From the NCBI GenBank assembly GCA_023380915.1, contig JAMCSM010000100.1:1-6716 (forward strand): a stretch of 6,716 bases of DNA, written 5' to 3'. Numbering within the stretch: position 1 is the stretch's first letter; each line of letters begins with the position of its first letter. Origin of the DNA: Actinomycetota bacterium. GTDB taxonomy: Bacteria > Actinomycetota > Humimicrobiia > Humimicrobiales > Humimicrobiaceae. Below the pieces are notes generated by a model. It was not told the origin of the DNA. It made no database searches and saw nothing but the letters and a program-made list of their open reading frames with translations. The translations under genes and the position numbers were made by a program. This document shows positions 1 to 6,394 of this stretch, piece by piece.

Positions 1-99
1 TGCAATAGAACTTATAATAATTGCTCCATATGTTAACCATTGCACCATATTTGATATATCATCCTTTTTTCTTATAAAGTTAAATCCAATCCAGAAAAA
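1..99 (-). repeat. 99-bp exact inverted copy of an internal part of the O-antigen polymerase gene
   Basis: Bases 1-99 are the perfect reverse complement of 472-570, inside the gene at 181-1413; position i pairs with 571-i. Identity stops at base 100, within an A-run (95-103). The copy reaches the window's first base, so it may continue outside. It is a fragment of the gene in the opposite orientation, encoding nothing by itself. Either the DNA has a real inverted duplication with a 372-bp spacer, or this is a chimeric contig end. The second inverted repeat in this window has exactly the same length, which favours a technical origin. Confidence 0.95.
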
Positions 100-2172: not shown

Positions 2173-2319
2173 ATAAAGCATCTGAAAAATGAAAAAAGCA
2201 CTGATAACAGGAATAACAGGACAGGATGGTTCTTATCTGACAGAATTTTTGCTTTCAAAAGGATACCAGGTGCATGGCATTATCCGAAGAGCAAGTTCAT
2301 TCAATACACACAGGATAGA

Positions 2320-2418
2320 CCACTTCTCCTGACTGCCTCTAAAATTCTTGTTGTTCCAAGGCCGGTTACATCTCCTGTATATTCAGGCAGGTCAAAGCTG
2401 ACCCTTACATGACTTTGC
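2320..2418 (-). repeat. 99-bp exact inverted copy of gmd bases 2512-2610
   Basis: Bases 2320-2418 are a perfect reverse complement of 2512-2610 (position i pairs with 4930-i), separated by a 93-bp spacer of normal gmd sequence. Mismatches occur immediately outside both ends (2319/2611 and 2419/2511). The inverted segment does not simply insert: it takes the place of roughly 39-42 native bases. The sequence leaves gmd at GACCAC, reads backwards from a downstream CCAC-containing site, and rejoins gmd just before LHYGD. This is the layout of a template-switch event with two jumps, or of a chimeric assembly path. Confidence 0.97.
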
Positions 2419-2803
2419 CCTTTTTCTTCATTATGGAGATATATCAGATTCAAGCCACATATCCCATATCATATACACTATCCAGCCTGATGAGATATAC
2501 CATTTAGGGGCGCAAAGTCATGTAAGGGTCAGCTTTGACCTGCCTGAATATACAGGAGATGTAACCGGCCTTGGAACAACAAGAATTTTAGAGGCAGTCA
2601 GGAGAAGTGGAATAAATACCAAATTTTATCAGGCATCATCTTCAGAAATGTTTGGAGCATCTTTACCCCCGCAAAACGAAAAAACACTATTTTATCCGAG
2701 AAGTCCTTATGGAGCGGCAAAAGTTTATGCATATTGGATGACAATAAATTATAGAGAATCTTATAATCTTTTTGCCTGCAATGGCATACTTTTTAATCAC
2801 GAA

Positions 2804-3826
2804 TCAATACCAAAAAACTCCCCCTTAATTATAGATATAGATGGAAAAATAGATATTCTTCCAATTGAAGATTTATTCAAAGTTGAAAAACATAGATATG
2901 AGGGAATATTAGATAAATATAAAAAGGCTTTTGTATGGAATGGCAAAGATTGGACCAAAATAATTAATGGAACTTGTTATAAAGACGTTAGAAAACCCCT
3001 GAAATTAATTCAAACAAGAGAATCATGCTATGAAGCAACATATGAACATGTCTGTTTTGATGATAAAAACAATGAAATAAGAACAAATAACATTAGAAGG
3101 GGAGACAAAGTTTTTAAAGTTAGTTTCCCTGAAAGTAAGGAAAAATTAATTTTGGATGAAAGATTAGCTAAATTTATTGGATATTTAATTGGTGATGGTT
3201 CTATTGATTCAAGAGGAAGAATAAGACTAACAGGTATAAATAAGAAAGAGTTAGTTAAAATAGCTGATTTAATTACCAACCAGTTTGGCTGGACATATAG
3301 ATTAAATACATTTGGACCAGGACAGTTTGATAATTGTAAAAAAGATATTTGGCAATTAGATATTAACAATAATTCCCATTTTGGATTATGGTTAAAAGAC
3401 AATATTTATACAAAACATAGTCAAGAAAAACGGATTCCGGTCTTTATTTTAAATTCGGATAGAGAAACAAAAAAAGCATTTTTTGATGGGTATTATTTGG
3501 CAGACGGAAGGAATAAAGGCAATGAAAAATATAAATATAAAGGATTTACTACAAACTCAGCCACATTATGTTTAGGACTTATTTTTATTTTTAAAAGTTT
3601 TTCTAATCAAATAATAAAATGTAAATGTGAATATAGAAATGGTAACAGATATTATTATGTTCAATTTAGGACTGAAGTTTTATCAAATAAAGGTAACCAT
3701 TTAAAGAAAAATCTAAATGAAATAATCAAAATAGTTGATACTAAATCTTCTGATGGATGGTTTTTTGACATTCAAACAGAATCTCAAAGTTTCGCAACGG
3801 GTCCTAATTTATTTAAAATTCATAAT
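2804..3826 (+). mobile_element. Intein with LAGLIDADG homing endonuclease, inserted in gmd
   Basis: A 341-residue insertion splits the highly conserved GMD motif NHESPRRG between Glu and Ser. It starts with Ser1 (SIPKNSPLIIDIDGK, splicing block A), has the block B T-x-x-H as T79-Y-E-H82, and ends in FKIHN with His340-Asn341; the +1 extein residue is Ser (3827-3829). Removal restores NHE-SPRRG exactly. The central part has two dodecapeptide motifs, LAKFIGYLIGDG at residues 121-132 and FFDGYYLADG at 226-235, both keeping the acidic residue (Asp131, Asp234), so the endonuclease may be active. Block F reads FFDIQTESQSFATG, with Gln where a His is often found. The intein frame is open throughout, so self-splicing and homing look possible even though the host gene is broken upstream. 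Insertion at a conserved active-site motif is typical of inteins. Confidence 0.93.
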
Positions 3827-4482
3827 AGTCCTAGACGCGGGGAAACATTTGTAACAAGAAAAATAACCAGAGCAATTGCAAATATACTTAAAGGAAATCA
3901 AAAAAATATATATCTTGGTAATCTGAATGCAAAAAGAGACTGGGGGTTTGCTCCTGAATATGTTGAATGTCAATGGCTAATATTACAGCAGGATAAGCCT
4001 GAAGATTATGTTATCGGAACAGGAGAAAGTCATTCTGTAAGAGAATTTGTTGAAAAGGCGTTTGCTTATGCAGGCATGGAAATAGAATGGAAGGGAAAGT
4101 CAACTGAAGAAAAAGGTATTATAAAATCCTTGAAACCATCTATCCCTTTAAATGTTGGTGATTCAATTATTGAGATAGACCCCAACTATTTCAGACCTAC
4201 AGAGGTTGAATTTTTACAGGCAGATATAAAAAAAGCAAAAGAAAAACTCGGTTGGCAACCAAGAGTAACATTTGAGGAACTGGTAAAAATCATGGTGGAC
4301 TATGACATTAAACAGGCGGGGCTTAAGCCTCAGGGTGAGGGAATAAAAATCTGCCAGGAAAAGGGGTTTTGCTACACAGACCATCAATATTCCTTTTATG
4401 AAAAAACCGACAAATAAAAATTATCAGTGATAATTGGAAATAACAGATTGGATTTTATCGCAGATTTATGAGGGCACAATGT

Positions 4483-4527: not shown

Positions 4528-4962
4528 CTACATTTTTTGCATTATTTTGTTGACCATCTGCATTTTCAGTCTCATTTCTGTTATTATATCTTTTTTCAAT
4601 TCCTTACTGATAATCTGCTGCCAATGTTTGAGGTTTTTATATTTGGGGTTCTTCATAAGTTTTGCTGAAGTATCCTTATAAAGTTTTTTCTGGAGAACCA
4701 TTATCCTGTTCAATTCCATTTTAAGCTTTGGGTCTGACTGTATAGTCTGCATCCTGAGTTTTTTCATCTGGTCATTTATTATCATTGCATCTTTACACTT
4801 CGCAGCAAAATCCTTTTTTATCTTCCACATCATCATACCCATAGGCCTGTTTGACATTCCCATCATCCCGTTGTTCTGCATCATCATCTGTTTTGCATAG
4901 CCTTTTGAAGCAAATAAACCTAAAAAGATTAACACCCCACCTATTAAAAGCAGTTTTCTCAT
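4528..4962 (-). CDS. Methionine-rich small exported helical protein (second paralogue)
   Basis: From ATG 4962 this is a 144-residue exported protein. Residues 1-23 form a signal peptide (MRK, hydrophobic core, GYA cleavage site). The mature N terminus is extraordinarily Met-rich, with ten Met among residues 26-46. The rest is charged and predicted helical, with TIQSDPKLKMELNRI and SAKLMKNPKYKNLK segments shared with its upstream paralogue. A GTG at 4971 is also in frame, but an SD-like GGGGGGGTGAT overlaps it and sits a few bases before ATG 4962, so I chose ATG. The size, export signal and helical Lys-rich body resemble Spy/CpxP-like periplasmic proteins, but no LTxxQ motif is visible, so homology is unproven. 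The Met clusters suggest binding of a soft metal such as Cu(I) or Ag(I), which is inference. It is last in the reverse operon, 31 bp after its paralogue. Confidence 0.75.
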   Translation of the reverse strand: MRKLLLIGGVLIFLGLFASKGYAKQMMMQNNGMMGMSNRPMGMMMWKIKKDFAAKCKDAMIINDQMKKLRMQTIQSDPKLKMELNRIMVLQKKLYKDTSAKLMKNPKYKNLKHWQQIISKELKKDIITEMRLKMQMVNKIMQKM

Positions 4963-4972
4963 TTTTATCACC
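4895..4972 (-). repeat. Leader repeat, copy 2 (SD plus signal-peptide codons)
   Basis: This 78-bp segment matches 5274-5351 with about three mismatches. It covers the ribosome binding site, start codon and whole signal-peptide coding region of the Met-rich gene. Similarity falls sharply once the mature protein begins. Confidence 0.9.
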
Positions 4973-4993: not shown

Positions 4994-5341
4994 TTATTTC
5001 ATACTTTTTCTTTCTTTCTGTAATTCTTTACGGATTGTTTTCAGTTGCTGTTTAAGGTCTTGATATTTACTATTACCCTTAAGTTTTGCAGAAAGAATTT
5101 TGTGTAGTTGTTTGGCAAGTGTTCTTATCTGTTGAAAAGTTTGCTTAAGTTGCGGGTCTGACTTAATAGTTTCTATCCTGATTTTCCTCATATCTCTTTT
5201 TATTTTCATTGCTTTTTTTAAGCTGCCAACAATTTTGGATTTCGTAGAGGTTCCATTGCCCCCTGATTGGCCCGCATAGCCTTTTGAAGCAAATAAACCT
5301 AAAAAGATAAGCATCCCACCTATTAAAAGCAGTTTTCTCAT
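4994..5341 (-). CDS. Small exported helical protein (first paralogue)
   Basis: From ATG 5341 this is a 115-residue protein with a signal peptide (residues 1-23, ending GYA before GQ), a short Gly/Ser/Thr-rich linker, then a strongly basic helical body: KKAMKIKRDMRKIRIETIKSDPQLKQTF, then SAKLKGNSKYQDLKQQLKTIRKELQK. The AGAGGTGAT Shine-Dalgarno (5346-5354) four bases before the ATG sets the start; a TTG at 5368 in frame is rejected because it lies upstream of that site. It is a clear paralogue of the next gene but lacks the Met-rich segment. Location is probably periplasmic. It resembles Spy/CpxP-like accessory proteins in size and composition, and I cannot assign a function. An ECF-like promoter lies immediately upstream (5361-5388). 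Confidence 0.75.
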   Translation of the reverse strand: MRKLLLIGGMLIFLGLFASKGYAGQSGGNGTSTKSKIVGSLKKAMKIKRDMRKIRIETIKSDPQLKQTFQQIRTLAKQLHKILSAKLKGNSKYQDLKQQLKTIRKELQKERKSMK

Positions 5342-5351
5342 TTTTATCACC
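5274..5351 (-). repeat. Leader repeat, copy 1 (SD plus signal-peptide codons)
   Basis: This is the partner of the copy at 4895-4972, with about 3 differences in 78 bp, in direct orientation. The encoded leaders differ by a single residue, Met versus Val at position 10. Confidence 0.9.
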
Positions 5352-5360
5352 TCTGGTTGT

Positions 5361-5388
5361 TTAGACAAATCAAGTATAGGAAAAGTTT
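5361..5388 (-). promoter_or_regulatory. Candidate ECF-sigma promoter for the two small exported proteins
   Basis: On the reverse strand AAACTT (5388-5383) is followed after exactly 16 bases by GTCTAA (5366-5361). This matches the general ECF pattern of an AAC-containing -35 and a GTC-containing -10. It lies between the membrane-protein gene and the first small-protein gene, 20 bp from the ATG, and leaves a very short leader just including the Shine-Dalgarno. If recognised by the sigma factor encoded at 6394-5837, it would make the pair a direct regulon. A sigma70-like TATACT also lies inside the spacer, without a good -35. Confidence 0.45.
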
Positions 5389-5400
5389 AGTGTGAAAAAT

Positions 5401-5862
5401 TTACTCGGATTTCAATATGTCATTTATTATTGTTTTCTGCATACCTGCAGGAACATAATTGAAATAATTTACAAAATCTTTTAAAGGAAGAATCTGCTCA
5501 TCAGGATAATAAATTCCCAGGGTATGACTGTATGGAATTTGTAATCCATCCGGATTTAATGTCTTTGATACAGGTTTATATGAAATTTTTCCGTTATGCA
5601 TTTTAACAGGAATAAAAAATTTAGCGGAAAAAAATGGAAAATATAAAAGAAGAACAAAAATTAGACTTCTTGTTAAGATTCTTCTTGTTCTATAGGATGC
5701 TTTTTTACTTTCCCATTCCTGATAAAGTTTGTTATATTGAATTTTCCAGAAGGATTCAGAAAACTGCGGGACATTAATTTTCCTTGCAAGAAGTAATAAT
5801 TCTTTTATATCCCCGGGTTCTTCTTTGTTTTTATCTTCAATAATTTTTTTTCTGAATTTCAC
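5401..5862 (-). CDS. Single-pass membrane protein, probable anti-sigma factor
   Basis: The 153-residue protein has a charged cytoplasmic N-terminal part (1-60), one membrane segment (about 66-86) and a C-terminal part of about 67 residues, presumably periplasmic. The segment ARKINVPQFSESFWKIQYNKLYQEWESK (26-53) resembles the cytoplasmic part of ECF anti-sigma factors that precede the membrane anchor. There is no HxxxCxxC zinc motif, so it is not a classic ZAS anti-sigma factor. The start is GTG at 5862, supported by GGAG seven bases upstream. It overlaps the end of the sigma gene by 26 bp, the usual arrangement for translationally coupled sigma/anti-sigma pairs. The assignment rests on position, topology and this weak motif rather than on clear family identity. 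It would hold the sigma factor at the inner membrane until a periplasmic signal releases it. Confidence 0.65.
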   Translation of the reverse strand: MKFRKKIIEDKNKEEPGDIKELLLLARKINVPQFSESFWKIQYNKLYQEWESKKASYRTRRILTRSLIFVLLLYFPFFSAKFFIPVKMHNGKISYKPVSKTLNPDGLQIPYSHTLGIYYPDEQILPLKDFVNYFNYVPAGMQKTIINDILKSE

Positions 5863-6394
5863 TGTCTTTCTCCATTAATTTCAGTATATTTTTTAGTTTT
5901 TCCACTGTCTGGGAAAAAGCTGCTTTTGCCGTACCCGTTTTAACCTTCATTATTTTAGCTATTTCTTCATAGGGCAGGTCATTGTAAATCCTGAGAGTAA
6001 AAATTGTTTTTTGTTTCAAGGTCAGGCTTTCAATTGCCTTGTCAAGCATTAACATTTTTTCCTCCTGTTTTTCCGGTTCTTTCATATTTTCCACGGTTTT
6101 ATCAAACTGAAAAATCAGTTTTTGTTCCGGAATAAACGTAATTCTTTTTTTCCCCCTGAGTCTGTCATAACATAGATTTATAGTGATTCTATAAAGCCAG
6201 GTCTGGATTTTTGCCTGGTTTCTAAATTTAGAAAAACTGTTTAAAGCCCTTAAAAATGCCTCCTGTACTATTTCAAGTGAATCATCATTATTTTGCAGCA
6301 GCCTGAATGCTGTATTATAAAGTAGTTGCGCATATTTATAATAAGCCTCCTCTAATTTATTTTCTTTCTCTTTATTATTTTTGACGAATTTCAT
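5837..6394 (-). CDS. ECF-type RNA polymerase sigma factor (sigma70 family)
   Basis: The 185-residue protein has sigma region 2 at about residues 21-84 (YAQLLYNTAFRLL, DDSLEIVQEAFLRA, then WLYRITINLCYDRLRGKKR). A charged linker follows, then region 4 at about 117-171 with the helix-turn-helix LPYEEIAKIMKVKTGTAKA and following LKNIL. There is no region 1 or 3, as expected for ECF (group 4) sigma factors, and the length is typical. It directs RNA polymerase to a small set of promoters, likely in response to an envelope or metal signal passed on by the overlapping membrane protein. The ATG at 6394 has no good Shine-Dalgarno, so translation may be weak or the start slightly different. It heads a probable four-gene operon with the membrane protein and the two small exported proteins. 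Confidence 0.92.
   Translation of the reverse strand: MKFVKNNKEKENKLEEAYYKYAQLLYNTAFRLLQNNDDSLEIVQEAFLRALNSFSKFRNQAKIQTWLYRITINLCYDRLRGKKRITFIPEQKLIFQFDKTVENMKEPEKQEEKMLMLDKAIESLTLKQKTIFTLRIYNDLPYEEIAKIMKVKTGTAKAAFSQTVEKLKNILKLMEKDSEIQKKNY

What the first reader, a model, noticed from the sequence alone, without database searches (positions are those of the whole stretch)
2804..3826. LAGLIDADG intein inserted in the SPRRG motif of GDP-mannose 4,6-dehydratase
Sugar-nucleotide dehydratases are not among the common intein hosts (polymerases, RNRs, helicases, RecA) that I know. Here a full-length intein with both LAGLIDADG motifs splits NHE/SPRRG precisely, and both ends are intact. It implies a homing allele travelling among polysaccharide loci, which are themselves often exchanged horizontally. 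I cannot say whether it is undescribed.
Basis: partly seen in the sequence, partly recalled or inferred. Interest (0 to 1): 0.7.

Follow-up and report, generated by a model that had tools for sequence, protein, structure and literature searches.

The report
Mobile intein inside sugar-nucleotide enzyme gene
A complete intein (a self-splicing protein element) with a DNA-cutting homing domain sits exactly in a conserved motif of the enzyme GDP-mannose 4,6-dehydratase, and relatives at the same spot in distant bacteria, archaea and phage-like contigs suggest that it jumps between cell-surface sugar genes.

Summary
The finding is real. Window 2804-3826 (+) encodes a 341-residue class 1 intein (Ser1, TxxH, block F Asp, C-terminal His-Asn, Ser+1) with two LAGLIDADG motifs, exactly between NHE and SPRRG of GMD. 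The model (pLDDT 90.3) matches intein-endonuclease structures end to end (300-310 residues aligned). Of 78 database relatives, 70 show both Ser1-type junctions here, 2 of them shifted one residue. Carriers include Atribacteria, Campylobacterota, Deferribacter, Omnitrophota, Patescibacteria, two MAGs labelled archaeal and four viral contigs. Intein and GMD trees conflict beyond a split-half control: the window's closest sampled GMD (75% identical) carries a distant intein (55%), while a Methanothermococcus-labelled intein is 73% identical with a 57% extein. One Atribacteria genome holds an occupied GMD and an uninterrupted copy (91%, no gap). GMD is not a wholly new host: a 2022 cyanobacterial paper mentions full-length inteins in gmd. 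This site, family and cross-domain spread were not found in print in ten searches. GMD has at least four intein sites; a second, mostly Thr1, family uses this one. Caveat: the window's N-terminal extein is broken by a 99-nt inverted copy with in-frame stops, probably an assembly artefact. Splicing and homing are untested.

The parts
2804..3826 (+). 341-residue class 1 intein with nested LAGLIDADG homing endonuclease
2804..2806 (+). Ser1, predicted N-terminal nucleophile; invariant in 76 of 76 complete sequences
3038..3049 (+). Block B T79-Y-E-H82 (TxxH); His in 76 of 76, Thr in 75 of 76 (one Ser)
   Evidence: block names as in PMC4031507 passages
3164..3199 (+). First LAGLIDADG motif LAKFIGYLIGDG (acidic residue D131)
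3473..3508 (+). Second LAGLIDADG motif KAFFDGYYLADG (acidic residue D234)
3767..3769 (+). Block F Asp322; invariant in 76 of 76
3821..3826 (+). C-terminal His340-Asn341, followed by Ser+1 (3827-3829); all invariant in 76 of 76
2189..2803 (+). N-extein of GDP-mannose 4,6-dehydratase (gmd), interrupted at 2320-2418; 2648-2803 is the part listed in one ORF with the intein
3827..4417 (+). C-extein of gmd, starting SPRRGETFVTRK
2320..2418 (+). 99-nt exact inverted copy of 2512-2610 with two in-frame stops; probable assembly artefact
1..99 (+). 99-nt exact inverted copy of 472-570 at the contig end; probable assembly artefact

Best explanation
The segment is a class 1 intein with an embedded two-motif LAGLIDADG homing endonuclease. 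Shown: it is in frame with GMD and carries a complete set of splicing residues. Inferred: Ser1 attacks the Glu-Ser1 bond, Ser+1 takes over the N-extein, Asn341 cyclises and the exteins are joined to give the native NHE-SPRRG motif; unspliced precursor has that motif split and should be inactive. Inferred: the released intein cuts the empty NHE/SPRRG site in intein-free gmd genes and is copied in by repair. Shown: the family occupies that site in distantly related gmd genes, including on phage-like contigs, in a pattern that does not follow the gmd phylogeny. This supports repeated horizontal homing, with phages as plausible carriers.
For: Exact in-frame insertion. Pfam LAGLIDADG_3. Model pLDDT 90.3 with end-to-end matches to intein-endonucleases. 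70 of 78 hits show both Ser1-type junctions, 2 of them shifted one residue. In 76 complete sequences Ser1, His82, Asp322, His340, Asn341 and Ser+1 are invariant, residue 131 is acidic in 76 (70 D, 6 E) and residue 234 is Asp in 75 (dropped rows are named in the full report). Carriers under many phylum names and in two MAGs labelled archaeal; four viral contigs with terminase, portal or capsid genes. The genome of L001 has an uninterrupted GMD 91% identical to the joined L001 extein over 354 residues, no gap. Identity order flips (intein/extein): WIN-P0057 55/75; P0057-L007 74/54; WIN-L002 73/57. aLRT 98.6 for WIN+P0057 in the extein tree against 94.7 and 100 for their separate intein clades. 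Cross-tree deltaLnL exceeds the odd/even control in each of four half-alignments, 2.5 to 4.7-fold. Intein dN below dS in four of four pairs. Intein G+C below that of its C-flank in 15 of 15 places.
Against: No splicing, cleavage or homing was measured. AU p-values are weak evidence alone, because odd and even columns of the same part reject each other too. Exteins also move horizontally, so the direction of each transfer is unknown. In this contig gmd is interrupted upstream; if that is real, this copy is broken. Carrier names are those of the records; for the two archaeal MAGs the proteins scanned gave no archaeal marker. One sequence of 76 has Asn at position 234, one relative is a decayed free-standing gene (P0074) and one is frame-broken (L020). 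dS near or above 1 by NG86 is unreliable.
Confidence: 0.93

Rival explanations
1. The intein is inherited with gmd and no longer homes; its scattered pattern reflects horizontal transfer of whole intein-bearing gmd genes.
For: gmd sits among surface-polysaccharide genes that are often exchanged (Wzy_C-like neighbour; glycosyltransferase-like neighbours in L001 by eye), and the sampled exteins do not follow organism names either.
Against: Intein and extein identities flip in order with well-supported conflicting clades. Both endonuclease acids are kept in nearly all copies. Most GMD-bearing genomes sampled lack this intein.
Confidence: 0.12
2. A decayed or non-splicing insertion: the segment keeps its sequence but this GMD is inactive.
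For: The window's N-extein carries two in-frame stops in a 99-nt inverted copy. Decayed relatives exist: free-standing P0074 without the HN terminus and frame-broken L020.
Against: All splicing residues are intact and invariant; intein dN is below dS; the break lies outside the intein, and a second inverted copy of identical length at the contig end suggests the assembler. In 10 of 11 carrier genomes no uninterrupted GMD passes the family cut-off, so the intein-bearing copy may be the only one.
Confidence: 0.05
3. The intein is kept as a regulatory switch (conditional splicing) for GDP-deoxysugar supply.
For: It splits a conserved motif, and in 10 of 11 carrier genomes no uninterrupted GMD passes the family cut-off (best uninterrupted hit there 192 bits, cut-off 415). 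Conditional splicing is published for other inteins (PMC5790916, start of abstract in a listing).
Against: No signal, sensor residue or expression datum was looked for or found; MAGs are incomplete; sporadic presence (2 of 298 genomes in one order, both already known carriers) favours a selfish element.
Confidence: 0.1

Closest known systems
TliVMA / PhoVMA inteins (PDB 7qss, 7qsu, 7qst) and intein-endonuclease PI-PkoII (2cw7)
   Same: Hint splicing domain with nested LAGLIDADG endonuclease; end-to-end structural match, 20-22% identity
   Different: Other hosts: V-ATPase subunit A (entry names) and, as recalled, a DNA polymerase; TliVMA and PhoVMA begin with Cys (entries are C1A variants), not Ser
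gmd inteins of Thermosynechococcus (Taiwanese and Indian strains; PMC9403480)
   Same: Full-length ('type II') inteins in GDP-D-mannose dehydratase, stated in one sentence of section 17
   Different: Site and sequence are not given in the section read; the genome-contig scan with A1 returned no cyanobacterium among its 11 loci; family identity untested
Mja UDP-glucose dehydrogenase intein (recalled from InBase, no call)
   Same: Intein in a sugar-nucleotide enzyme
   Different: A dehydrogenase, not a 4,6-dehydratase; not compared here
Mostly Thr1 GMD intein family (P0077, P0078, P0199-P0317)
   Same: Same NHE|S insertion site in GMD, HN|S C-terminus, LAGLIDADG_3 recorded for part of the rows
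   Different: 27-31% identical to the window intein, 389-454 residues where parsed, Thr at position 1 in 113 of 121 rows

Membership tests
Class 1 intein | Cys, Ser or Thr at intein position 1 and at extein +1 | tested here: met
   Ser1 and Ser+1 in 76 of 76; definition from the Figure 3 legend of PMC4031507 (passages)
Class 1 intein | Block B Thr and His (TxxH) and block F residue (commonly Asp) | tested here: met
   T79 in 75 of 76, H82 in 76 of 76, D322 in 76 of 76
Class 1 intein | C-terminal Asn with penultimate His | tested here: met
   H340-N341 in 76 of 76
Class 1 intein | Hint fold | tested here: met
Class 1 intein | Exact in-frame insertion in a conserved motif, with intein-free homologues | tested here: met
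Class 1 intein | Self-excision with ligation of exteins | not testable with these tools
   Needs an expression assay
LAGLIDADG homing endonuclease (intein-borne) | Two LAGLIDADG helices each ending in a catalytic acid | tested here: met
   Pfam LAGLIDADG_3 5.8e-08; residue 131 D or E in 76 of 76, residue 234 D in 75 of 76, one N
LAGLIDADG homing endonuclease (intein-borne) | Specific cleavage of the empty allele | not testable with these tools
   Needs purified protein and target DNA
Mobile (homing) intein | Sporadic presence and phylogeny discordant with the host gene | tested here: met
   Presence. Discordance with split-half control:

The most novel reading that the evidence does not exclude
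GDP-mannose 4,6-dehydratase is a major multi-site intein host outside DNA metabolism. At least four conserved motifs are invaded (NHE|SPRRG, DWGHAKDY|, YQA|STSELYG, LGAM|SHV), some proteins carry two inteins, and the NHE site hosts two distantly related families, one beginning mostly with threonine. Phages and their surface-sugar genes may be the exchange platform that carries these inteins between bacterial phyla and into archaea.
Probability: 0.55. Interest if true: 0.6.

Novelty: new member of a known kind. Interest (0 to 1): 0.48.

Why it matters
[quoted passage not shown] A family under many phylum names in a surface-polysaccharide enzyme, with an occupied and an empty copy in one genome and copies on phage-like contigs, gives a testable system for cross-phylum homing. 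The mostly Thr1 family at the same site would let one compare Ser- and Thr-initiated splicing in the same extein context.

Tried and rejected
Normal GMD domain: rejected, since 128 of 298 and 146 of 384 sampled genomes have a GMD over the full-length cut-off and nearly all listed rows are in one piece (one search's list was cut; two of the 128, G259 and G098, pass although interrupted by another intein). Chance ORF fusion: rejected, 70 of 78 hits repeat both junctions, two shifted by one residue. Deposited phages and plasmids: no tblastn match of the intein. Whole genome of the window: none held. G060 looked like a further insertion, but its frames contain N-masked stretches and no intein was seen in the pieces read. 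AU p-values as sole proof of transfer: rejected, odd and even halves also reject each other. HEN swapped against the splicing domain: Hint and HEN trees conflict with deltaLnL 372 and 434, more than the odd/even halves of the intein (300 and 235) at similar size (143 and 190 columns against 171 and 170); some exchange is possible, left open. Archaeal origin of the L002 and L003 contigs: Pfam of seven neighbours gave no archaeal marker; the record titles are relied on. Whether the Thermosynechococcus gmd intein belongs to this family: not tested. Literature: ten searches answered, open-licence papers only; I looked at passages of, or searched for terms in, PMC3322345, PMC5874633, PMC7765530, PMC4031507, PMC5050341, PMC5371798, PMC8528832 and PMC9403480 and read section 17 of the last. 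Of these only PMC9403480 was seen to mention a gmd intein; the other listed papers were not opened.

Full report
WHAT IS THERE. The window holds a Wzy_C O-antigen-ligase-like gene (181-1413), an adenylylsulfate kinase gene (1558-2172), gmd with the insert (start 2189; open frame 2648-4417), two small similar proteins (4528-4971 and 4994-5368, minus), a further unassigned ORF (5401-5862, minus) and an ECF sigma factor (5837-6394, minus). The sigma factor's best relatives that bear an organism name are Candidatus Omnitrophica (73% and 56%), so the contig is probably Omnitrophota (inference). No whole genome is held for it.

RELATIVES. A search with words from the intein only, allowing full-length hosts, gave 78 proteins. 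70 of 78 show both junctions of the Ser1 type: 68 at N[HNS]E|S...HN|S, and P0051 and P0053 shifted one residue (NHEG|S...HN|SRRG). The other eight are P0011, P0033, P0039, P0075, P0076 (truncated or unclear ends), P0074 (free-standing) and P0077, P0078 (other family). For conservation and trees I used 76 sequences: the window, 61 of the 78, and 14 of the 15 loci. The 17 proteins left out are P0011, P0012, P0033, P0039, P0072, P0074-P0078 (fragments or other family), P0006, P0010, P0013, P0016, P0025 (same protein as a locus), P0009 (short) and P0043 (shorter intein); L011 was left out as frame-broken (its region is L020). In these 76, Ser1, His82, Asp322, His340, Asn341 and Ser+1 are invariant, Thr79 is 75 of 76, residue 131 is D in 70 and E in 6, residue 234 is D in 75 and N in one; intein lengths are 336-350.

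WHO CARRIES IT. Genome contigs: 11 loci, named Atribacteria (L001), Methanothermococcus (L002), Methanophagales (L003), Campylobacteraceae or Campylobacterales (L004, L005, L009), Sulfurovum (L010, L011), Patescibacteria (L006) and Omnitrophota (L007, L008); one protein is named Deferribacter abyssi (P0014). Viral contigs: four loci. L014 (168-kb contig) has a terminase and a portal gene nearby, L012 a portal gene, L013 a major head protein and a DNA methyltransferase, L015 a terminase. Deposited phages and plasmids have no match. In the order of G010, 133 of 298 genomes have a GMD hit at 1e-60 and two carry this family; both (G009, G010) had already been found and G010 is the centre; a third genome, G076, gives a weak hit (4e-9). 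In the phylum of G007, 199 of 384 have a GMD hit at 1e-55 and four an A1 hit at 1e-20: the two known carriers G007 and G008, G553 (Thr1 type in GMD, L029) and G682 (an intein in the equivalent PRRG motif of a GMD-like protein, L028; read by eye).

MOBILITY. Identities (intein/extein): window-P0057 55/75; P0057-L007 74/54; window-L002 73/57; L004-L010 74/56; L005-L010 70/87. In the extein tree window+P0057 are sisters (aLRT 98.6); in the intein tree the window lies with L001, P0001-P0005 and P0008 (94.7), then L003 and P0007 (94.2), then L002 (93.4), while P0057 lies with L007, L008 and five others (100). Each alignment rejects the other's tree (deltaLnL 1318 and 2509, LG+F+R4). Control (LG+F+G4): odd against even columns of the same part give 235-325, the cross tree 689-1328 on the same halves, so the conflict exceeds noise although p-values alone do not show it. 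The window's extein is only partly present (its N-terminus is broken), which weakens its own placement. Synonymous divergence window-L001 is lower in the intein (0.83) than in the C-extein (1.73), with dN 0.15 and 0.28 (rough at such values). Intein G+C is below that of its C-flank in 15 of 15 places compared. The genome of L001 also holds an uninterrupted GMD (L025), 91% identical over 354 residues to the joined L001 extein, no gap: an occupied and an empty copy in one genome. In the other 10 of 11 carrier genomes no GMD passes the family cut-off of 415 bits, the best uninterrupted hit being 192 bits; MAG incompleteness limits this.

OTHER INTEINS IN GMD. A search from P0077 gave 346 proteins, of which the best 120 are listed. 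Of 121 rows parsed (those 120 and P0078) the first intein residue is Thr in 113, Cys in 3 (P0208, P0213, P0303), Ser in 1 (P0253), and 4 could not be parsed (P0202, P0220, P0279, P0301); lengths where parsed are 389-454. The 226 unlisted proteins were not seen. L016 and L017 carry a Cys1 intein at DWGHAKDY|C; P0215 and P0232 carry that and the Thr1 type; P0231 has a further one at YQA|C...GN|STSELYG, and P0258 and P0307 have one before SHV. That makes at least four sites, read by eye from the sequences and not modelled.

KNOWN OR NEW. PMC9403480 (section 17 read in full) states that full-length inteins occur in gmd of Taiwanese and Indian Thermosynechococcus. So a gmd intein is on record, without site or family in that section. 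None of the other papers whose passages I looked at was seen to mention one (see Tried and rejected); only open-licence papers are held, and supplementary tables could not be read. PMC4031507 (passages) names Cys1 or Ser1 as step-1 nucleophiles in its text and Cys, Ser or Thr in a figure legend, so Thr1 is allowed for.

CAVEAT ON THE WINDOW. The two exact 99-nt inverted copies (1-99/472-570; 2320-2418/2512-2610) both end at 99 nt (the first also meets the contig end). The second takes the place of part of the GMD N-terminus and adds two stops, with the same reading frame on either side. Equal lengths suggest a k-mer assembler; without reads this is inference. It does not touch the intein.

MECHANISM, SHOWN AND INFERRED. 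Shown: sequence anatomy, fold match of the model, site, distribution, discordance. Inferred: splicing chemistry, inactivity of the unspliced enzyme, cleavage of empty sites, carriage by phages.

Noticed in passing
window 2320-2418 / 2512-2610 and 1-99 / 472-570: Two exact inverted repeats, both 99 nt; probable k-mer assembly artefacts, one of which puts stops into the gmd N-terminus.
   Followed up: partly
P0077, P0078, P0199-P0317: A second GMD intein family at the same NHE|S site, 346 hits, with threonine first in 113 of 121 rows parsed; P0298 is named from a viral metagenome.
   Followed up: partly
L016, L017, P0215, P0232: A different Cys1 intein in GMD at DWGHAKDY|C; P0215 and P0232 carry two inteins.
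   Followed up: partly
P0231, P0258, P0307: Further inteins upstream in GMD, at YQA|STSELYG and at LGAM|SHV or LAAQ|SHV, in proteins that also hold the Thr1 type.
   Followed up: no
P0074: Free-standing 336-residue relative without the HN terminus: an intein that seems to have become a stand-alone gene (resembles the recalled yeast HO case).
   Followed up: no
P0051, P0053, L013: Insertion shifted by one residue (NHEG|S...HN|SRRG).
   Followed up: partly
L028 (G682): A related intein in the equivalent PRRG motif of a GMD-like paralogue (FTH|S...HN|TGPRRGD), read by eye.
   Followed up: no
L012 8134-11376: The portal-like protein of this viral contig seems by eye to carry its own intein-like segment near its C-terminus.
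   Followed up: no
window 4528-4971 and 4994-5368 (-): Two similar small proteins whose first 78-nt region is 96% identical, near an ECF sigma factor gene; no Pfam family.
   Followed up: no
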